A DNA stretch of 36,098 nucleotides, from contig JAFVBA010000006.1 in NCBI GenBank assembly GCA_017480245.1, positions 1-36,098 on the forward strand, in the 5' to 3' direction. A program made the translations under genes and the position numbers. Of this stretch, positions 25,363 through 33,760 are shown piece after piece. Source of the DNA: Bacteroidales bacterium. GTDB taxonomy: Bacteria > Bacteroidota > Bacteroidia > Bacteroidales > P3. The stretch's first letter is position 1, and each line of letters begins with the position of its first letter. Under the pieces are notes generated by a model. That model made no database searches, was not told where the DNA came from, and was given only the letters and a program-made list of their open reading frames with translations.

Positions 25363-25448
25363 AAAATAAAACGGCGTTTCAGTAAATTCTTTTTTCATTT
25401 TATTTTACTGAAACGTAGCTTTATTTTCGTAAAGTGCCGTTTTATTTT
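25363..25448. repeat. Nested palindrome, dispersed repeat copy E3 and likely terminator
   Basis: Outer arms AAAATAAAACGGC (25363-25375) and GCCGTTTTATTTT (25436-25448) pair perfectly over 13 bases. Inner arms CGTTTCAGTAAA (25375-25386) and TTTACTGAAACG (25404-25415) pair over 12. The outer arm overlaps the last codons of the HMA-protein gene (stop 25442), so on the minus strand this also acts as its likely terminator. The AAAATAAA-xCGGC motif recurs in the hairpins at 26529 and 27570. Confidence 0.75.
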
Positions 25449-25813
25449 GAGCAGCCCTTATCTGTGCCGTGGTGTGAGCCGCCTTCACCCTTGCAACAAG
25501 CAGGTAGTTTTGCTCTTGCGTCTTTATCGGCTTTTATTTCGCCTGCATCGTAACCTACTTTGGCTACTGCCTGCGATATTTTCTTCACGTTGGTAAGTTT
25601 CTCGTTGTAATCCAAAGTCAATTCCTTGGTATTAGCGTTCCAAACAGCCGTCTTAACGCCTTTAACACTCTTTGCGGCTTTCTCAATCTTGGTCTTACAC
25701 ATACCGCATACGCCATTAACTTTGATTTTTGCGTCTTTTGCTTCAACATTTGCGAAACTCATTGCAGCGAAAATGAATGCTGCTACCGTAATTACTCTAA
25801 ATGCTTTTTTCAT
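25442..25813 (-). CDS. Secreted heavy-metal-associated (HMA) domain protein
   Basis: 123 residues. Signal peptide to about 25 (MKKAFRVITVAAFIFAAMSF, ending NVEA). One HMA ferredoxin-like domain follows, with metal site GMC at Cys36-Gly-Met-Cys39 and GYDAGEIKAD at its end. The tail has a Cys-Cys pair, two His and a further Cys (ACCKGEG, SHHG, GCSK), which may bind extra metal. Probably a periplasmic copper chaperone linked with the efflux operon at 27621-33760. Has its own -7 box (TAATTTTG, plus 25858-25865). Confidence 0.85.
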   Translation of the reverse strand: MKKAFRVITVAAFIFAAMSFANVEAKDAKIKVNGVCGMCKTKIEKAAKSVKGVKTAVWNANTKELTLDYNEKLTNVKKISQAVAKVGYDAGEIKADKDARAKLPACCKGEGGSHHGTDKGCSK

Positions 25814-25947
25814 TTGATATAATGTTTTTATATTTTGTTAATTAATTTTCTCGTTTGCAAAATTATACAATTTATTATATGCCGAAAATATATTTTTTTG
25901 TAAAAAACTTACAACATTCTGCAAATTCAATGCCACAATTCGCCGTT

Positions 25948-26409
25948 TTATAAAATCGGTAAGTCCTCAGGCATTAACCATAGCGCCTCAAACTCATTAT
26001 ATTTATTCAAAGAAATAATACAATTTGTCATAAACTCAACCGAGATTCTTATATCATCTGAAAAAAGTTTCCCTACGCATAAACATTTCTTGGCAAAATC
26101 TACAAAAACAGAGAATTTGTTATCGTGAGTAATGTCGTAAGTAAAACCTTTTTCCAATTCATCAATAACTTTCAGTACTCCTTTTCTGTGAGGTGGTATT
26201 TGCAAATTGCATTGCATATCTTTTGATACAGGGAAACAGCCCCAGATTTGATGGACTTGGCGGTTTATAACCGTTAGATTCAAATAGTTTATTTCTATTG
26301 TAAAATCTGAAGAATTAATAACAGGAAGCGTTTCTATAGAATAGTCTTCCTTTTCATAAACCAACCGAATATCTGGTATGTTTTTATTATAATCAACGGT
26401 AAATTTCAT
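25948..26409 (-). CDS. Unknown small cytoplasmic protein, 153 residues
   Basis: ATG 26409 opens MKFTVDYNKNIPDIRLVYEK; the longer frame needs a TTG. No signal peptide or membrane segment. Strand-rich; features are INYLNLTVINRQVHQIWGCF, a Cys-rich spot KKCLCVG and the end LWLMPEDLPIL. I do not recognise the family. Small single-domain proteins of this look next to variable DNA are sometimes immunity proteins, but nothing here proves that. Driven by the promoter at 26484-26513 that is part of a duplicated segment. Confidence 0.6.
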   Translation of the reverse strand: MKFTVDYNKNIPDIRLVYEKEDYSIETLPVINSSDFTIEINYLNLTVINRQVHQIWGCFPVSKDMQCNLQIPPHRKGVLKVIDELEKGFTYDITHDNKFSVFVDFAKKCLCVGKLFSDDIRISVEFMTNCIISLNKYNEFEALWLMPEDLPIL

Positions 26410-26483
26410 AGTAGTATCATTATTATCCCCTTTTGCAAATATATAATTCGTATTAATCAAACTATCTCTTGCTTAAATCTCTA

Positions 26484-26513
26484 CAAAAGTACAAAATGTT
26501 TTTGAATTGACAA
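26484..26513 (-). promoter_or_regulatory. Promoter of the unknown gene at 25948
   Basis: Minus-strand TTG (plus CAA 26511-26513), 19 bases, TACTTTTG (plus CAAAAGTA 26484-26491). Identical -7 and TTG boxes with the same spacer in the copy at 27522-27551. Confidence 0.7.
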
Positions 26514-26528
26514 GAAAACAATAAAATA

Positions 26529-26559
26529 AACGGCAAAGAAAACTATTTTCTCTGCCGTT
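26529..26559 (-). terminator. Terminator of the membrane protein gene at 26584
   Basis: AACGGCA (26529-26535) with TGCCGTT (26553-26559); the stem continues with GAGAAAA/TTTTCTTT-type pairs. On the minus strand TTTATTTTATTG follows. It lies 25 bases after the stop at 26584. Confidence 0.75.
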
Positions 26560-26583
26560 GGATGTAATTTTTCTGCCTCATTT

Positions 26584-27231
26584 TTATATTGCATTTCTAA
26601 ATATTGTAACCACATAAAATTGCAGAATACTGATAGTAATGATTATTATTAAGTCTGTTGTACTATAAGTTCTTTTTTCTTTAGGAATAATCTCATTAAC
26701 ATTTTTAGAAAAAAAGAAATAGAAGCAAAATAATATGCTTATTGCAAATCTTGTAATGGATAGAGTCCCTGTAGATATTAATGTTTCCATTAACAATAAA
26801 TATTGTATAACTACGGAACAACATATAAATTTGGCAAAAAATATTGCATTAGATTTTTTCTTATATAATAAATAAGTTGCATATATAAATACCAAAGAAG
26901 TACATATAGAGTTTACTAAAAATATCGAATTATCGATTAATGTATGGATTCTAAATCCTGTAAATAATTCGTAAATTCCACCTATAAATAAGAATATTAT
27001 GTAGGCATAATATAATGGATATGTGTTCTTAGGAGTATCTTCTTTGTTTCTTTTATTATTGATAAGTGCAGTAAACATTGCTAATGAAGAAGCAGGAATA
27101 TTTCGTTGCTTTAATTCTTCGCATATATCATCAATATACTCCGTTTCATATTTTTCCGATTCATTAAGAATGGTTATTAATTCTTCAGTTGTTTTGCCAT
27201 CAATTAGATGTCTGTACTTTGAATTTGACAT
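26584..27231 (-). CDS. Four- to five-helix membrane protein with N-terminal helical domain
   Basis: 215 residues from ATG 27231 (MSNSKYRHLIDGKTTEELIT); the longer TTG frame would begin inside a hairpin of the leader. Residues 1-50 form a cytoplasmic helical part (TEELITILNESEKYETEYID, DDICEELKQRNI) seen at the front of many small Bacteroidota membrane proteins. From about 75 onward there are four or five membrane segments (YYAYIIFLFIGGIYELF; ISILFCFYFFF). Distantly like DUF2569-type proteins, but I would not insist. It is preceded by an unusually long structured leader (27232-27520) and flanked by the duplicated cassette. Confidence 0.65.
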   Translation of the reverse strand: MSNSKYRHLIDGKTTEELITILNESEKYETEYIDDICEELKQRNIPASSLAMFTALINNKRNKEDTPKNTYPLYYAYIIFLFIGGIYELFTGFRIHTLIDNSIFLVNSICTSLVFIYATYLLYKKKSNAIFFAKFICCSVVIQYLLLMETLISTGTLSITRFAISILFCFYFFFSKNVNEIIPKEKRTYSTTDLIIIITISILQFYVVTIFRNAI

Positions 27232-27520
27232 TTTTATTGTTTTTCCCAGTGGTTTCAAAGGAAGAGGTCGCTCCTTAGACCTATGTTTAAATTATACAAA
27301 GAAAGCGTGAAACCACTAACATATATGATAAATTATACCCTAACTATTAGGTGCGTGAGAAATAAACCTGTTCTAAAAGATATAACTATAGTGGAAAATC
27401 ACGCCATAGCAGACGTTGATATTGCCACTAAATTATAACTTGTTAGAACTAAAGTTTCTCACGCTTTATAGTACAAGTTACAATATATGACCGCTTTCGC
27501 TTACCAACTGATAAGCACCT
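27232..27520 (-). ncRNA. Long structured 5' leader or non-coding RNA with alternative folds
   Basis: The promoter at 27522-27551 would start RNA near 27516, about 285 bases before the ATG. Plus-strand positions: arm A 27455-27467 (TTTCTCACGCTTT), arm B 27353-27362 (GCGTGAGAAA), arm C 27302-27317, arm D 27248-27257 (AGTGGTTTCA). A pairs with B over 10 bases and C (27308-27317) with D over 10. But A (27459-27467) also pairs perfectly over 9 with C (27302-27310), which excludes both. Nested inside A:B are 27370-27376 with 27443-27449 and 27389-27394 with 27425-27430. A further 8-base pairing, 27436-27443 with 27473-27480, conflicts with A:B. D lies 17-26 bases before the start codon. No ORF seen. 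Whether this is a leader switch or a separate RNA cannot be told. Confidence 0.6.
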
Positions 27521-27521
27521 G

Positions 27522-27551
27522 CAAAAGTACAAAAGTTTTTTGAATTGACAA
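27522..27551 (-). promoter_or_regulatory. Promoter of the structured leader and membrane protein gene
   Basis: Minus-strand TTG (plus CAA 27549-27551), 19 bases, TACTTTTG (plus CAAAAGTA 27522-27529). Confidence 0.7.
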
Positions 27552-27569
27552 GATATAGACAATAAAATA

Positions 27570-27600
27570 AACGGCAAAGAAAAGTGTTTTCTCTGCCGTT
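27570..27600 (-). terminator. Terminator of the copper efflux operon
   Basis: AACGGCA (27570-27576) with TGCCGTT (27594-27600), extended by A/T pairs, then a U-rich TTATTTTATTG on the minus strand. Lies 20 bases after the CusB-like stop. Confidence 0.75.
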
Positions 27601-27620
27601 GGATGTAATTTTTTTGCGTC

Positions 27621-28886
27621 TTATCTATTACTGAACGAGCGTTTGCCTTCTAATTGGGCGGCGGCATCTATTTGGAATACACCGTTTGTTGCTATTTCGT
27701 CGCCTTCATTCAATCCGCTCAGCACAATATACGCACCGTTTATCGCAGGACCTAACTCGACTTCCCTCATTGCAAATGTCGGTTGCTCTTGTTCTGTGGC
27801 TTTTACATAGACTACACTTTTCTTTCCGCTCCAAAGTACTGCACTCTTAGGGATTATCATTTTGCCTCTGTATTCTTTTAAATCTGCCGTGATGTTTGCC
27901 GTTGCGTACATATTGGGTTTAAAAATGTTTCCGCCGTTAGATAATTCCACCCTGACGTCTGCCGTACGTGTTTTGGCATTGACAAAAGCGTCTATATAGG
28001 CTATTCGTCCTTTGAACACATTTCCTTGCAATGCTTCACAGGAGAATGTTATCGTCTGGCCGACTTTTAAAAACGGTAGGTCTTTTTCATAAGCTTTCAA
28101 GATAAGCCATAGGTTTGACAGGTCTGCTACTTTAAACAACGCCTTGCCTTGCGAGATGTAATCGCCTTGATTTACGTTTTTCTCCACAACCACTCCGCTT
28201 GTGTTGGCTTTAAGTTCCACGAAAGGCGTGGCTTTCTTCGTTGCTATGATGTTATCTATCTGTGCAGGCGTAAGATTCCAAAGCAATAATTTTTCTTTTG
28301 CCGATGATACCATCACTTCTTTTTGTGCGTTATCGGGATAATCCAATGCCGAAACCAATTCCTGCGTTGCGGTATAGACTTCGGGCGAATAAACGGTGGC
28401 GAGAGTCTGTCCTTTAATAACTCTGTCGCCTACTGCGGTAACGTTTAACTTCTCTATTCTGCCATTTACGTATGCCGTCTGCACTTGAGAGGAACGCTGA
28501 TTGACGTCTATGTTTCCGTAAAGCGTCAAAACTTTTTCGCCGTCTTCTTCCCAAACCACCATCGTTTCAATATTAGCAAGTGCCGAGGCTTCATCGCTTA
28601 ACATCACTGCATTTTCATCTACTGCGTTGTGGTCAGTCTTTCCGACCTCCGTCAAATCCATTCCGCACAAAGGACATTTGCCTTCCTTATCCTGACGTAT
28701 CTGTGGGTGCATGGAACAAGTATATTCTTTCACGCCTTTCTGCTCCGAAGAATCTTTTGTTTTAGATGGAGCGAAGACTAAATAACCGACAAAGAAACCC
28801 ACTAATAATAAAATAATGACTTTAACGCCGTTCGGAATTTTTACATTTTTAATTCCTTTACCCGAAATCAAATTAAATTTCTTCAT
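27621..28886 (-). CDS. cusB: CusB-like periplasmic adaptor of an RND metal efflux pump
   Basis: 421 residues from ATG 28886. N-terminal membrane anchor at about 22-39, then a heavy-metal-binding domain EYTCSMHPQIRQ...CPLCGMDL with Cys57, Cys71 and Cys74. Barrel-sandwich and beta-barrel domains of the HlyD family follow (GRIEKLNVTAVGDRVIKGQT; LWLILKAYEKDLPFLKVGQT). The protein joins the inner-membrane pump to the TolC-like channel and hands over Cu(I) or Ag(I). The start overlaps the TolC gene by 14 bases. Length and domains are normal for CusB with the metal-binding domain fused at the front. Confidence 0.92.
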   Translation of the reverse strand: MKKFNLISGKGIKNVKIPNGVKVIILLLVGFFVGYLVFAPSKTKDSSEQKGVKEYTCSMHPQIRQDKEGKCPLCGMDLTEVGKTDHNAVDENAVMLSDEASALANIETMVVWEEDGEKVLTLYGNIDVNQRSSQVQTAYVNGRIEKLNVTAVGDRVIKGQTLATVYSPEVYTATQELVSALDYPDNAQKEVMVSSAKEKLLLWNLTPAQIDNIIATKKATPFVELKANTSGVVVEKNVNQGDYISQGKALFKVADLSNLWLILKAYEKDLPFLKVGQTITFSCEALQGNVFKGRIAYIDAFVNAKTRTADVRVELSNGGNIFKPNMYATANITADLKEYRGKMIIPKSAVLWSGKKSVVYVKATEQEQPTFAMREVELGPAINGAYIVLSGLNEGDEIATNGVFQIDAAAQLEGKRSFSNR

Positions 28887-30144
28887 AATCCGATACCATT
28901 GTTTGAAGTTTTGCAATAATCTTGTTAATATTCGCCACTGCGGAGGCTTTTTTCAATTTATAATCCAACAGTTTCTCTTCAATACTGAATAAATCCGTTA
29001 CCGATGCTTGATTATTTGCATACGAAACGTTAAGAATCTTTATGTTTTCTTCAATTAACTGCATCTGCCTTTCGTATAACGCAATTTTCTTCTTTTCATT
29101 AAGATAGTTCTGCTGTAAATTCAAAAACTCCGCCTTAATATTGTCTTTTGTTTGTTCGTAATTTGACGCAATGCTTTCGCTTTTCAACTTCGCCGCCGCA
29201 ATATTGGAATTGAACTTCTTACGGTTCAACGGCAAAGAAACTTTAAACATCGCCATAAACATATTTTTGCCGTTCATATCTTCCATTTTCGGCATTGCGG
29301 TTTCCTTGTTAATCATATACTCCACACCAACACCAATCATAGGCAAAGACATACGTTTTTGCATCTCAACTGCGTGCATTGAGGCTTTGGAATCCGCCCG
29401 TAACATCGCAAGCATCGGCGACATATTCTCTATTTTCTCAAATGTAAAAGCATCCGCATCATACATATCTTCAACTACCGAATCCGCAACCTTAACACTC
29501 AGATTTTCGTCCCTATGTAACAAAACGTTAAAGGCTTTTTTCTTTACCGCCAAGTTGTCTTTCAAAGTTTCCAAATTAAGATTCAATTCCTCTGCTTTAA
29601 GTTGCAGATTTATCAACTCAGGTAACAGTGATTTCTGTTTGCTGTTAGGGTTTGCGGACGCATATTTTTGATACGCACTCTCGGTTGTTTGTTTCAAAAG
29701 CGCCGATTTCTGCTCTGTAATCTTTATTTGTTCATTCAAAAGCACCATTTCGTAATACGCAGACTTGACTTTATAAACCAAATCCGCAGTTATTTTCTTT
29801 TTTGTCTGCGAAAGTCCGTCCGTCATACACTGCATTTCTTTTCTTTGATTGCTGAGCGTACCGGGGAAAGGGAACATTTGCATAAGGGACAGCGTTGCAA
29901 TTTGTTCGCCATTGACATTCATCATCGATTCGGGCAGAATATTCACTCCGAACTCCGCATCCTGCAACGCCGACTTACCGTTTATATTTTCTTTCGCCGC
30001 CGCAATCTCACTTGATTTCGCTTTTATCTCTTGCGAGTTCTCAACCGCAATTTTTATATAATAGTTTAAATTTTCTATCTGAGCATAAAGATTTCCGCTA
30101 TACAATATTATACTATATGTAAGTATCAAAAAATATTTTTTCAT
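28873..30144 (-). CDS. TolC-family outer membrane channel (CusC-like)
   Basis: 423 residues. Signal peptide MKKYFLILTYSIILYSGNLYAQ. The body is mostly long amphipathic helices in two repeated halves (AVENSQEIKAKSSEIAAAKE near the start; IKILNVSYANNQASVTDLF near the end), as in TolC trimers. No lipobox is present, unlike Proteobacterial CusC. The stretch rich in Met (PMIGVGVEYMINKETAMPKM) may touch metal. Starts 4 bases after the pump gene stop; the operon order is pump, channel, adaptor. Confidence 0.9.
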   Translation of the reverse strand: MKKYFLILTYSIILYSGNLYAQIENLNYYIKIAVENSQEIKAKSSEIAAAKENINGKSALQDAEFGVNILPESMMNVNGEQIATLSLMQMFPFPGTLSNQRKEMQCMTDGLSQTKKKITADLVYKVKSAYYEMVLLNEQIKITEQKSALLKQTTESAYQKYASANPNSKQKSLLPELINLQLKAEELNLNLETLKDNLAVKKKAFNVLLHRDENLSVKVADSVVEDMYDADAFTFEKIENMSPMLAMLRADSKASMHAVEMQKRMSLPMIGVGVEYMINKETAMPKMEDMNGKNMFMAMFKVSLPLNRKKFNSNIAAAKLKSESIASNYEQTKDNIKAEFLNLQQNYLNEKKKIALYERQMQLIEENIKILNVSYANNQASVTDLFSIEEKLLDYKLKKASAVANINKIIAKLQTMVSDYEEI

Positions 30145-30148
30145 TGTT

Positions 30149-33100
30149 CTATAGTTTATTTTGTCTTTTTCTTACTGAATTTCTCCACGTGTATTGCAAG
30201 ACGGGAACGACAAACATCGTCATAACTTGCAAAAGCATACCGCCGAAACACGGAATTGACATCGGTATCATTATATCTGCGCCTTTTCCCGTTGAAGTCA
30301 GTACAGGCAATAAGGCAATCAAGGTCGTGGCAGTTGTCATAGCGGCAGGACGCACTCGTTTTTTGCCCGCTTTAACAACGGCTTCAAGGATTTCTTGTTT
30401 GGTTTGAGGCTTGTCTTTGAGAAATACCTGATGAATATACGTCCCCATAAGCACGCCGTCATCGGTTGCAACGCCGAATAACGCAATAAAGCCTACCCAT
30501 ACCGCAACGGAGAGATTAACGGTGTGCATATTGAAGATTTCGCTACGCAGATTAACTCCGAAAACAGAGAAATTCAAGAACCAATCCTGCCCGTAAAGCC
30601 AAAGAAGTATGAATCCGCCTGCGAAAGCCACAAAGACGCCCGAAAAATGTATCAAGGAGGCTGTAACGCTTTTGAATTGGAAGAAAAGAATCATAAGGAT
30701 GATAAGAAGAGCGATAGGAATGACGAGCATTAATTGTTTTGCAGCGCGGTGTTGTTGTTCATAGTTGCCTGCGAACTTGTAGGATACGCCGTCAGGTATT
30801 TTTATCTTGCCCTGTTTTACCAAGTTGTCAAGATGTTTCTTCGCAGAATTGACAACATTCACTTCGGCGATGTCGCTTTGTTTGTCAAAGATAACGTAAC
30901 CAACAAGAAAGGTGTTCTCGCTTTGAATCATCTGCGAACCTTTTGTGTAGTTGATGTCAGCGACTTGCGACAACGGTATCTGTGTCATTGATGAGGTCGG
31001 AACAAGGATATTTTCTATTGCTTCGGGATTTTCTCTTAACTCTTTTGGATAACGAACGCGTACGTTGTAACGCTCTCTGCCCTCAACGACTGTTGTCATA
31101 GGCATGTTGCCTATTGCACCCTCAATTATGTCCTGCAAAGTTGTGATGCTAACGCCGTATCTCGCCATCTTCTCTCGGTTACAAGTGATTTCAAGATAAG
31201 AAGAGGAAAGACTGCGGTCATAAAACACGCTCGCAGGATTTATTTCCTTGACGTTTTTGAGTTCTTTCTCAAAGACAAGTCCTGCTTTTTCTATGTCTTC
31301 AAGTGTAGGTGCGTATATCTTAAGTCCCATCGGGGCGCGCATTCCTGTTGAAAGCATCACCATTCGCGTAGCAATAGGCTGAAGTTTAGGAGCGGTTGTT
31401 ACGCCCGGGATAGTTGCCGCCTTGGATATTTCGTTCCAAATGTCGTCTGTTGATTTTATTGAGTTGCGCCATTGACGTAAGTAACTGCCGTAAGAACTCT
31501 TTATCAGGGAATCTTCCGTAAGGATTCGGAACTCGTGTTTAGCATCGTACATTCCGCCGTTTTTGAGGATGAATCTTCCTTTGGAATCGGTTTTAAACCT
31601 TGCTCGCTTACCGTTTTCGTCAAGTAAGTATTCGGGACGGTAATTTATGGTCGTTTCATACATTTGTACGGGTGCAGGGTCTAATGCTGAATTGACGCGT
31701 CCCCATTTGCCTACCACGGTTTCAACTTCGGGGATGTTCTTTATCCGTCTGTCCATTATGCCGATATATTCCAAGTTCTGCTCAACGCCACTGTGAGGCA
31801 TGGAAGTAGGCATTAGCATAAAACTTCCTTCATCTAAGGTAGGCATAAACTCATTGCCCGTATTCTTCCATATAAATACGCCAGCAACTAAACAAAGTAA
31901 AGGTATAAGAAGGAATTTCACCCTGTTGTTTAAGCACCAACGCAGGATTTTTTCGTAATAAATAACCAATAGCCACAATACCGCTAAGATAAAAGCAATA
32001 ATCAACGCCACAAACAATACATTTAACAATATACCTTTGCCAGCCCCTAACGGCATCCACGCAAAAGACAACACATAAACGGCAAAAGATAATACAAGAG
32101 CAAAAACAAGTTTTTTGTTTATCTTGTTTGTCAGTTTAGTATGCCAATAAGTCTTATGAGAGTTATAAGTCCAATGTTTTTTGACAGAAAATATCCAATA
32201 AATTAAAGTAGGCAAGATAACAATTCCTAATAAAAAGGCGGAAAGAAGTGCAAATGTTTTTGTGAATGCCAAAGGTCGGAACATTTTTCCTTCTTGTGCC
32301 TGCATTACAAAGACTGGAAGGAATGAGATTATCGTTGTTGCCATTCCCGTAGTAACGGCAGGTGCGACTTCATCTACACTTGCGTTTATCGTTTTCAGAA
32401 GTGTCCGTTTGTAATTGTACGCTCCTTGCTTCAAATTACGCAAAACATTTTCTGTAAAGACAACTCCCACATCCACCATAACACCTATGGCTATCGCAAT
32501 GCCGCTTAAAGCGACTATATTTGCTTGCAGTCCCGTCAGTTTCATAATTATAAACGTCAATAACACGGCTAACGGCACCATAGCGGAAATTACCAAGGAC
32601 GCCCTGAGATTTAAAACCAACACAAGTACAACTATTATACATATTATTATTTCGTGCAACAGCGAAGACTCCAATGTGCCGATTGTTTCCTTTATTAACT
32701 GCGTGCGGTCGTAAAAAGGAACTACCGTTACCTTACTTACCGTGCCGTCTTTGAGAGTTTTCTGCGGCATTCCTGCGTATGACTCCTCTATTTTAGCTTT
32801 TACGTTGTTTATTACTTCCATTGGATTGCTTCCGTACCGTGCAACGACAACACCTCCCGTTGCTTCGATGCCCTCTTTGTCCAGTCCTCCTCGTTTTTCT
32901 GTCGGTCCGATATTTACTTTCGCTACATCTTTAACGCAAACAGGCACTCCGTCCCGAGAAGTTATCACAGCGTTTTCCAAATCTTCTGTACTCTTAATGT
33001 AACCAAGCCCACGGATAAGGTATTCCACGCGGTTTATCTCCGTAGTTCCTGCACTCACGTCAAGATTACTGCTTTTTACCGCACCCATCACTTGCATTAA

Positions 33101-33760
33101 GTCAATATTGTACGCAAGCAATTTCTGCGGATCAACATCTACTTGGTATTCTTTGACCTGTCCGCCAATGGAAGCCACTTCCGAAACGCCCTCTGCCGAA
33201 GATAACGAATATTTTACGTAATAATCCTGTATCGTTCTTAACTCTTCCTGCGACCAACCGCCCGTTGGCTTATTTGTTTTGGGATCTTTGCCCTCCAAAG
33301 TGTACCAAAAGATTTGCCCAAGTCCCGTTGCATCGGGTCCGAGTGTGGGTTTGACGCCCTCAGGAAGCAATCCGTCAGGCAGAGAGTTAAGTTTCTCCAA
33401 AATACGAGAGCGTGAGAAATAAAACTCTACATCATCGGAAAAGATAATATATATAAAGGACATGCCGAGCATAGAAGTGGAGCGTATGGTTTTAACTCCG
33501 GGAATACCCAATAGTTGGGTCGTCAAAGGGTATGTTACTTGCTCTTGAATGTCTTTGGGACTTCTGCCCATCCATTCGCACGTTACTATCTGCTGATTGT
33601 CTCCTACGTCAGGGATTGCATCAACGGAAACAGGATTACGCAGAAAAAAATATGTATTCCAATTAAACGGTGCAGTGTATATACCTCCTGCAATGATGAT
33701 TATCAAAAGTATTGCCGTAATTACACGGTTCTCTAAAAAATATCTTATTATCCTTTTCAC
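30149..33760 (-). CDS. cusA: CusA/CzcA-family RND heavy-metal efflux pump
   Basis: 1203 residues, somewhat longer than the usual about 1050; extra residues lie in the central region between the two halves (after LIYWIFSVKKHW). Twelve membrane segments in RND order. TM4 reads GIAIAIGVMVDVGVVFTEN, the CusA (Cu+/Ag+) form rather than the CzcA form with an extra Asp. PAPVQMYETT and RMVMLSTGM place Met residues where CusA has two of its three metal-binding methionines. Proton-driven export of monovalent copper or silver is therefore likely. First gene of the operon, with two palindromes in front. Confidence 0.93.
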   Translation of the reverse strand: MKRIIRYFLENRVITAILLIIIIAGGIYTAPFNWNTYFFLRNPVSVDAIPDVGDNQQIVTCEWMGRSPKDIQEQVTYPLTTQLLGIPGVKTIRSTSMLGMSFIYIIFSDDVEFYFSRSRILEKLNSLPDGLLPEGVKPTLGPDATGLGQIFWYTLEGKDPKTNKPTGGWSQEELRTIQDYYVKYSLSSAEGVSEVASIGGQVKEYQVDVDPQKLLAYNIDLMQVMGAVKSSNLDVSAGTTEINRVEYLIRGLGYIKSTEDLENAVITSRDGVPVCVKDVAKVNIGPTEKRGGLDKEGIEATGGVVVARYGSNPMEVINNVKAKIEESYAGMPQKTLKDGTVSKVTVVPFYDRTQLIKETIGTLESSLLHEIIICIIVVLVLVLNLRASLVISAMVPLAVLLTFIIMKLTGLQANIVALSGIAIAIGVMVDVGVVFTENVLRNLKQGAYNYKRTLLKTINASVDEVAPAVTTGMATTIISFLPVFVMQAQEGKMFRPLAFTKTFALLSAFLLGIVILPTLIYWIFSVKKHWTYNSHKTYWHTKLTNKINKKLVFALVLSFAVYVLSFAWMPLGAGKGILLNVLFVALIIAFILAVLWLLVIYYEKILRWCLNNRVKFLLIPLLCLVAGVFIWKNTGNEFMPTLDEGSFMLMPTSMPHSGVEQNLEYIGIMDRRIKNIPEVETVVGKWGRVNSALDPAPVQMYETTINYRPEYLLDENGKRARFKTDSKGRFILKNGGMYDAKHEFRILTEDSLIKSSYGSYLRQWRNSIKSTDDIWNEISKAATIPGVTTAPKLQPIATRMVMLSTGMRAPMGLKIYAPTLEDIEKAGLVFEKELKNVKEINPASVFYDRSLSSSYLEITCNREKMARYGVSITTLQDIIEGAIGNMPMTTVVEGRERYNVRVRYPKELRENPEAIENILVPTSSMTQIPLSQVADINYTKGSQMIQSENTFLVGYVIFDKQSDIAEVNVVNSAKKHLDNLVKQGKIKIPDGVSYKFAGNYEQQHRAAKQLMLVIPIALLIILMILFFQFKSVTASLIHFSGVFVAFAGGFILLWLYGQDWFLNFSVFGVNLRSEIFNMHTVNLSVAVWVGFIALFGVATDDGVLMGTYIHQVFLKDKPQTKQEILEAVVKAGKKRVRPAAMTTATTLIALLPVLTSTGKGADIMIPMSIPCFGGMLLQVMTMFVVPVLQYTWRNSVRKRQNKL

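What the first reader, a model, noticed from the sequence alone, without database searches (positions are those of the whole stretch)
27232..27520. Leader RNA with mutually exclusive long pairings ahead of a membrane protein gene
A consensus promoter would start an RNA near 27516, but the gene begins at 27231. In between, four arms can form A:B (10 bp) plus C:D (10 bp), or A:C (9 bp), which excludes both; a fifth pairing (8 bp, 27436-27443 with 27473-27480) also conflicts with A:B. D lies 17-26 bases from the start codon. Four perfect matches of 8-10 bases in one 240-base stretch are hard to explain by chance. This is the layout of a switch: a riboswitch, thermosensor or protein-controlled attenuator, or else a separate small RNA. 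I do not recognise a known class.
Basis: partly seen in the sequence, partly recalled or inferred. Interest (0 to 1): 0.75.

Follow-up and report, generated by a model that had tools for sequence, protein, structure and literature searches.

The report
Widespread pseudoknotted leader RNA in Bacteroidota
The stretch is one copy of a large, knotted RNA structure that sits at the front of many unrelated genes in bacteria of one phylum; it matched no catalogued RNA family searched here and probably controls how those genes are expressed.

Summary
The window leader (27242-27516, minus strand) is one of about a dozen copies in its own genome and belongs to an RNA family found across Bacteroidales (101 of 295 genomes sampled) and, thinly, beyond (22 same-class and 1 same-phylum genomes of 392). 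No copy tested reached a gathering score in Rfam 15. On 113 sequences, 67 pairs including pseudoknots are kept in 86.5% of cells, with 723 double-sided changes against 264.5 +/- 15.5 in shuffles. The rival A:C pairing is not supported by covariation. Copies carry a promoter box (147 of 155 vs 13% at random positions) and end in a pseudoknot whose last stem stops a median 17 nt before the start codon. Downstream proteins are largely unrelated (154 in 104 clusters) but enriched in hydrophobic N-termini (107/156 vs 177/614). Best reading: a new class of cis-acting leader RNA controlling translation initiation, perhaps riboswitch-like. Ligand or partner unknown; no expression data.

The parts
27520..27533 (-). 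Promoter-like element TTTGTACTTTTGCA (TACTTTTG at 27522-27529; recalled as the Bacteroidota -7 type of box)
   Evidence: the box TA(n)1-2TTTG lies within 120 nt upstream of the core in 147 of 155 copies vs 203 of 1550 random positions
27499..27516 (-). P1, 5' hairpin GCTTA...TAAGC (sequence varies between copies)
27302..27497 (-). Structured core, closed by P0 (27492-27497 with 27302-27307)
   Evidence: R2 match to 27302-27497; P0 98.5% of cells paired in A6; in 38 divergent copies 213 of 228 cells, with AAAGCG/CGCTTT, AAAGTG/CACTTT and AAGGTG/CACCTT
27436..27480 (-).
   Evidence: 90.6% of cells paired in A6
27343..27472 (-). P3: 27468-27472 with 27343-27347 (5 bp in this copy, longer in many others)
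   Evidence: 96.7% of cells paired, all 7 pairs with double changes in A6
27353..27464 (-).
   Evidence: 95.1% of cells paired, 7 of 9 pairs with double changes in A6
27370..27449 (-). P6: 27443-27449 with 27370-27376, variable stem extending P5
   Evidence: double changes at every pair but 58.9-78.0% of cells paired in A6; base 27443 is shared with the 8-bp form of P4
27385..27433 (-). P7/P8 hairpin, approximate limits (27425-27433 with 27385-27394; inner 27412-27416 with 27401-27405)
   Evidence: 88.3% and 88.5% of cells paired in A6; P8 varies mostly on one side
27333..27385 (-). P9 pseudoknot TTATATC/GGTATAA: 27379-27385 with 27333-27339
   Evidence: nearly always paired in the genus set; 80.9% of cells for its main block in A6
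27248..27317 (-).
   Evidence: 82.4% of cells, all 7 pairs with double changes in A6; complement found 7/7 in 73 of 132 copies vs 3.75% for shuffled strands
27265..27282 (-). P12 hairpin with AAGGA in its loop (27272-27276); absent from 2 of 25 genus copies (L007, L031) and, by eye and not counted, from most copies of A6
27243..27263 (-). P13: 27260-27263 with 27243-27247, last stem before the start codon
   Evidence: stem of at least 5 bp around the P11 3' strand in 79% of 109 copies vs 33% at random positions; 64.7% of cells in A6
26584..27231 (-). Downstream gene, 215 aa, read as a membrane protein from its sequence; no Pfam match (a TTG-started frame reaches 27258)

Best explanation
The leader is one copy of a new, widespread class of structured 5' leader RNA. 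Shown by comparison: a core closed by P0, a long stem P3-P5-P6 crossed by two pseudoknots (P4, P9), a P7/P8 hairpin, and a 3' pseudoknot P11/P13 ending about 17 nt before the start codon. Inferred: the RNA is transcribed with the gene and works in cis. The core senses a general cellular signal (a small diffusible ligand or an RNA-binding protein) and, through P0 and the P11/P13 pseudoknot at the edge of the ribosome's footprint, sets translation initiation. The target genes are diverse and mostly look exported or membrane-bound, so the signal is more likely a global one than the product of one pathway.
For: Covariation: 723 double-change cells vs 264.5 +/- 15.5 shuffled and 152-219 in slid controls, on 113 sequences. 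Range: 12 of 14 genomes of the genus, 108 of 190 of the family, 101 of 295 of the order, and 22 same-class plus 1 same-phylum genomes in a sample of 392. Leader position: ATG of an ORF of at least 60 aa between -30 and +60 nt of the RNA end in 135 of 157 vs 412 of 1570 random positions; promoter box in 147 of 155 vs 203 of 1550. P13 end to ATG: median 17 nt, quartiles 13 and 22, n = 100. Conserved unpaired bases, as expected of a binding site: UUAUGC next to P0, AA facing ACC between P3 and P5, and single bases (13 columns at 90% or more). Targets: 107 of 156 with hydrophobic N-terminus vs 177 of 614 other ORFs; 154 proteins in 104 clusters.
Against: No transcript, ligand or partner has been shown; no conserved alternative fold was established in the main class. 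Gene diversity is unlike metabolite riboswitches. P13 is among the weakest helices (64.7% of cells in A6); in 23 of 132 copies the P11 strand finds at most 5 of 7 matches, and L092 and L150 seem by eye to lack its partner. 194 of 295 genomes sampled in the order gave no match, under stricter filters, and most of the phylum sample (366 of 392) gave none. The N-terminus test is a crude hydrophobicity scale, and the two sides were chosen by slightly different ORF rules; for ORFs of at least 100 aa it is 101 of 139.
Confidence: 0.6

Rival explanations
1. The RNA is not a switch but a constitutive, portable expression module of accessory genes: it protects the transcript (from RNases or Rho-dependent termination) or helps the ribosome, so that newly acquired genes are expressed.
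For: Diverse downstream genes, some on mobile DNA: behind a MobV relaxase gene and ahead of blaMUN-1 on pBUN1, ahead of a DUF4433 gene on a P. distasonis plasmid. At the window locus a close relative has other RNA-led genes in the same place after cusB.
Against: Conserved unpaired bases and elaborate pseudoknots are more than a protective hairpin needs. Accessory status was not tested gene by gene.
Confidence: 0.2
2. The RNA is a self-cleaving or otherwise processing ribozyme that trims the mRNA to a short 5' UTR.
For: The structure ends a median 17 nt before the start codon, and a passage of PMC7366714 states that most B. thetaiotaomicron mRNAs have a 5' UTR of 23 nt. Nested pseudoknots are common in ribozymes (recalled).
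Against: No conserved sequence was noticed at a possible cleavage site next to P13 (by eye); no biochemical data.
Confidence: 0.07
3. It is a mobile element or recombination site that carries genes along as cassettes.
For: Many dispersed copies; 110-nt direct repeats (87%) flank the RNA-gene unit in the window.
Against: Such repeats were found for 4 of 74 copies, the window included. Covariation and a fairly fixed spacing to the start codon point to function as RNA.
Confidence: 0.06
4. One reading: A:B plus C:D in one state, A:C in the other.
For: A:C is 9 perfect base pairs in this copy and keeps 188 of 200 cells in the genus set.
Against: 9 of 25 genus sequences have a C-C mismatch in A:C while A:B is compensated; in A6 none of 113 keeps all 8 pairs.
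Confidence: 0.03
5. A trans-acting small RNA that happens to lie upstream of genes.
For: Multi-copy RNAs that act in trans exist in Bacteroides (FopS, PMC11697453 passages).
Against: Start codons are enriched right after the RNA. By eye no hairpin with T-run follows the RNA in the copies read; no terminator scan was run.
Confidence: 0.04

Closest known systems
Second-messenger riboswitches such as GEMM (c-di-GMP) (recalled; not fetched)
   Same: Several copies per genome ahead of unrelated genes, many for surface or exported proteins
   Different: No Rfam match, so not that family; larger, with pseudoknots P4, P9 and P11/P13; ligand unknown
FopS, RF04319, multi-copy sRNA family of Bacteroides (PMC11697453, passages read)
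   Same: Multi-copy RNA family in the same bacteria; one FopS lies in locus L091
   Different: FopS has a 71-position model, acts in trans and ends in a terminator hairpin; ours is about 200-285 nt, pseudoknotted, at gene starts
Candidate structured RNAs from human microbiomes (PMC8040213, passages read)
   Same: Reports 3161 candidates, 508 directly upstream of genes, some in Bacteroidetes
   Different: The passages read describe no such element; the supplements were not open to me, so fragments of this RNA could be among them
Processive antitermination leaders (EAR, put) (recalled)
   Same: Structured RNA at the front of a transcript that could act without regard to the gene
   Different: No Rfam match here; mechanism untested

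Membership tests
Any Rfam 15 family | Match at or above the gathering score | tested here: not met
   Window, 20 genus and family loci, 14 named or virus-collection loci, 18 loci of the phylum sample: no match over the RNA. Permissive searches of the window copy and one Bacteroides copy gave only hits far below gathering scores
Riboswitch (as a kind) | Conserved aptamer-like structure with covariation and conserved unpaired bases | tested here: met
Riboswitch (as a kind) | Located in the 5' leader of a gene | tested here: met
   (DNA evidence only)
Riboswitch (as a kind) | Direct binding of a small ligand | not testable with these tools
   needs in-line probing or similar
Riboswitch (as a kind) | Ligand-dependent alternative fold (expression platform) | tested here: inconclusive
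A local hairpin that would use up P0's 5' strand is possible in 106 of 113, but 61% of partly shuffled sequences also allow one. A divergent leader in L255 has an 18-nt direct repeat, 17 identical, between a core strand and its start-codon region, but only 6 of 156 main-class leaders have even a 12-nt repeat of this sort
Metabolite-feedback riboswitch | Target genes share a metabolic pathway | tested here: not met
   154 proteins fall into 104 clusters; 65 Pfam families among 117 proteins
RNA thermometer | Short local hairpin masking the start region, no sequence-conserved core (definition recalled) | tested here: not met
   Large conserved pseudoknotted core; the stretch of about 17 nt before the start codon lies outside it
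Mobile cassette | Shared ends or repeats flanking each unit | tested here: not met
   4 of 74 copies

The most novel reading that the evidence does not exclude
A kind of regulatory RNA not yet described: an old, portable leader module, spread over the Bacteroidia and perhaps beyond, with up to about 20 matches per genome, that couples very many unrelated accessory and exported genes, including cargo of mobile elements, to one global signal at the step of translation initiation in bacteria that hardly use Shine-Dalgarno pairing (last point recalled).
Probability: 0.35. Interest if true: 0.92.

Novelty: new variant of a known kind. Interest (0 to 1): 0.8.

Why it matters
A structured RNA of this size, spread over the Bacteroidia, a main group of gut bacteria, and repeated up to about 20 times per genome, would be a layer of gene control that annotation now passes over. 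It gives a handle on how these bacteria control surface and acquired genes, and on what signal they share. Because it leads genes in named species (Bacteroides acidifaciens, B. stercorirosoris, Phocaeicola coprophilus), the question can be tested directly.

Tried and rejected
Nested-only folding: the RNAalifold consensus of six copies mixed real and wrong pairs (it closed TTTATA with TATAAA, which the wider set does not keep well); a hand model with pseudoknots replaced it. An early reading of the segment after ACC as a local hairpin (P10) was dropped when it proved to be the 3' strand of P3. Shine-Dalgarno masking by P13 was considered because of AAGGA in the genus; outside it P13 keeps pairing in many copies while its sequence drifts (by eye), so it is not general. 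Group I intron, IscB/TnpB guide RNA and retron readings were set aside for want of Rfam matches or an attached enzyme gene noticed in the loci read; no dedicated search was made. A defence link was checked with PADLOC: of 45 families, the 25 shown match one protein each, save one weak match to two. In one family of 12 downstream proteins RNA and protein similarity correlate (Mantel r 0.51, p 0.0002), but species kinship confounds this and nothing is built on it. A search of papers for exact motif letters found three papers, unrelated by title.

Rows dropped: of 31, 84 and 81 matches, opposite-strand duplicates, matches cut by contig ends, matches below about 41 bits and repeats of the same DNA were left out, and L152 by oversight, leaving 157 distinct copies. 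Of 121 non-redundant copies chosen, eight (L103, L105, L148, L160, L166, L167, L232, L240), mostly for length, were left out of A6 by hand before any pair count; A6 shares no sequence with the 25 genus sequences of A2, but at least 8 of its 113 are divergent copies from the same genus. A7 was thinned likewise. could test 132 of 157. In one search P0 was first counted on 30 hand-picked divergent copies (173 of 180); one search repeated it on all 38 fetched: 213 of 228, six of six in 27 of 38. In one search the A:C test was run one base out of register; one search has the right one. Order, family and phylum searches used stricter filters, and the order and phylum ones samples. Match counts per genome include weak and some opposite-strand hits: the core is nearly palindromic in places and copies often match weakly on the other strand too.

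Full report
What was checked. The leader folds far better than shuffles (z -6.49). The wording that the fifth pairing conflicts with A:B is wrong: the two cross and can coexist as a pseudoknot.

It is repeated in the genome. A search of the window's own genome (a 1.75-Mb draft, completeness 69.55%) found the leader again, over most or part of its length, at C6, C25, C12 and twice on C26, at 68-77% identity, each ahead of a different gene. Among 61 genomes (the own one and 60 relatives) BLAST found it in 8, all of the same genus. An alignment of six copies and then of 25 showed a common structure.

Structure. From the 25 sequences I derived by hand: P0 closing the core; P3, P5 and P6 as one long interrupted stem; P7/P8 as a hairpin; P4 and P9 as pseudoknots crossing that stem from either side; P11 and P13 as a 3' pseudoknot in which the loop of P13 pairs with the strand before P0; P12 a hairpin between them, missing in 2 of 25 genus copies and, by eye, in most others. 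In the genus P5 changes on both sides: one pair is G-C in 14 and C-G in 9 of 25, its neighbour C-G in 17 and T-A in 8. On 113 further sequences, at least 8 of them divergent copies of the same genus, 86.5% of 7054 cells pair; 49 of 67 pairs have double changes; double-change cells number 723 against 264.5 +/- 15.5 in shuffles and at most 219 in slid controls. P3 is the strongest case (7 of 7 pairs with double changes, 96.7% of cells). P6 (58.9-78.0%) and P13 (64.7%) are the weakest, partly from poor alignment there. In 38 more divergent copies (all 20 fetched and 18 fetched) P0 pairs in 213 of 228 cells, fully in 27, and shows clean compensation, AAAGCG/CGCTTT, AAAGTG/CACTTT, AAGGTG/CACCTT. 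The structure string was derived from one member and the alignment was made by MAFFT without structure; the shuffles do not remove relatedness.

A:C keeps 188 of 200 cells in the genus, which looks good until one sees that C does not follow when P5 changes: 9 of 25 sequences have a C-C mismatch. In the 113-sequence set the same place pairs in 659 of 904 cells, but no sequence keeps all 8 pairs and 16 keep 7. I do not count A:C as part of the RNA. Another exclusive pair, a local hairpin that would use up P0's 5' strand, is possible in 106 of 113 sequences, but partly shuffled sequences allow one in 61%, so this is only a lead.

Range. Model R1 found matches in 12 of 14 genomes of the genus, 108 of 190 of the family in 11 of 12 genera and 56 of 295 of the order. 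The order-wide core model R2 raised the last to 101 of 295 genomes and 65 of 178 genera. A phylum sample gave 26 of 392: the own genome, 2 of the same order, 22 of the same class and 1 of the same phylum only. Of 18 loci from that sample that I read (17 of them outside the order), the core is recognisable, and in 12 the first ATG-started frame of at least 60 aa printed by the script starts between -21 and +56 nt of the core's end; in 6 it does not. Two virus-collection contigs match, as do 7 plasmid-collection records and 1 phage record. With permissive filters named genomes hold several matches each, e.g. 12 in B. stercorirosoris, 9 in B. acidifaciens, 13 in Prevotella sp. MGM2, 18 in an uncultured Alistipes; the window genome 13 and its relative G001 20. 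These counts include weak and some opposite-strand hits. One genome of the window's genus is Candidatus Scybalousia scybalohippi, judged by identical match positions.

Known or not. No Rfam 15 family reached its gathering score over the RNA in the window, in 20 genus and family loci, in 14 loci of named species and virus contigs or in 18 loci of the phylum sample; permissive scans of two copies gave only weak hits. Literature searches by motif letters and by topic showed no description in the listings; I read passages only of PMC8040213, PMC7366714, PMC10994844 and PMC11697453. Supplements were not open to me, and subscription papers are mostly not held, so a listing of this RNA elsewhere cannot be excluded.

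It is a leader. In 157 distinct copies an ORF start lies between -30 and +60 nt of the RNA end in 135, against 412 of 1570 random positions; the box TA(n)1-2TTTG, recalled as the Bacteroidota -7 element, lies within 120 nt upstream of the core in 147 of 155, against 203 of 1550. The strand before P0 finds a full 7-nt complement downstream in 73 of 132 copies against 3.75% for shuffled strands, and at least 6 of 7 in 109 of 132 against 40%. Around that complement a stem of at least 5 bp is found in 79% of 109 against 33%. That stem, P13, ends a median 17 nt before the ATG (quartiles 13 and 22, n = 100). So the structure stops at about the edge of an initiating ribosome and leaves the start region free. 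I infer control of translation initiation, not masking of the start codon.

What it leads. 107 of 156 downstream proteins have a hydrophobic N-terminal stretch against 177 of 614 other ORFs in the same loci (odds ratio 5.4, p 1.8e-19). The ORF rules differ a little (downstream frames from 40 aa and any start codon, others ATG-started and at least 100 aa); of downstream frames of at least 100 aa it is 101 of 139. Apart from that they are mostly unrelated: 154 proteins fall into 104 clusters, 82 of them single, the largest with 16 and 12 members. Pfam gives 65 families among 117 proteins, 25 of them shown: BspA-type leucine-rich repeats in 5, type 9 secretion tails in 5, Cro/C1 HTH in 3, Sel1, WG repeat and cNMP-binding in 2 each, and single cases such as DarT, DUF805, LemA and MBOAT. 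On plasmid pBUN1 the RNA lies between a MobV relaxase gene and blaMUN-1; on a P. distasonis plasmid ahead of a DUF4433 gene. At the window locus the cus-like efflux genes match relative G001 at 91% up to the end of cusB; then the two differ, and G001 too has RNA-led genes there. The direct repeats around the window unit are local, found for 4 of 74 copies.

How it may work. The conserved unpaired bases (UUAUGC beside P0; AA facing ACC between P3 and P5; a G before P7; the A between P11 and P0) look like a recognition site. P0 and the P11 5' strand are neighbours, so folding of the core could set whether the P11/P13 pseudoknot forms beside the ribosome. A divergent relative in L255, ahead of an exported protein, offers a strand exchange: 17 of 18 bases of its P3-P5 5' strand are repeated at the start codon, and the 3' strand can form 15 or 16 of 18 pairs with either. 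That is one case, and only 6 of 156 main-class leaders have even a 12-nt repeat. I rate cis-acting control of translation as most likely (0.6), without deciding between ligand and protein as the signal.

Verdict. A real and widespread RNA class that I could not find described; function inferred from anatomy.

Noticed in passing
L255:6751-6960 (relative G001, just after cusB): A divergent, shorter leader of the same general plan (P3-P5-P6 stem, P8-like hairpin) whose core strand is repeated, 17 of 18 bases, at the start codon of an exported-protein gene: a possible strand-exchange switch.
   Followed up: partly
window 26481-26587 and 27519-27628: About 107-110 bp of promoter plus terminator-like sequence repeated (87%) on both sides of the RNA-gene unit, suggesting a local insertion or duplication after the cus-like efflux genes.
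   Followed up: partly
L005 about 1500-1610 (own genome, C4:16830-16881): Promoter and P1 hairpin 96% identical to the window's over 52 bp, but without the core, ahead of what looks like an exported protein; a divergent full RNA copy lies nearby at C4:15979-16161.
   Followed up: no
window 25442-33760: Efflux genes of CusA/CusC/CusB type (ACR_tran, OEP, HlyD_D23 with heavy-metal-binding domain) and an HMA-domain protein, with the RNA-led gene and an unknown gene between cusB and the HMA gene.
   Followed up: partly
L237:4001-4217 (Bacteroides uniformis plasmid pBUN1): A copy of the RNA lies directly ahead of the beta-lactamase gene blaMUN-1 and behind a MobV relaxase gene; whether it affects that gene's expression is not known.
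   Followed up: no
L058, L061, L246: Three copies lead small helix-turn-helix regulators that cluster together.
   Followed up: no
12 loci incl. L072, L078, L089, L115, L216: A family of exported-looking proteins with a GIPVDG-like N-terminal motif follows the RNA repeatedly in several genomes; no function known.
   Followed up: partly
L091:1865-1931: A FopS sRNA (RF04319) lies about 4.5 kb from a copy of this RNA in Bacteroides acidifaciens.
   Followed up: no
L145: A contig binned as Candidatus Saccharibacteria carries a typical Bacteroidales copy; probably a misbinned contig.
   Followed up: no
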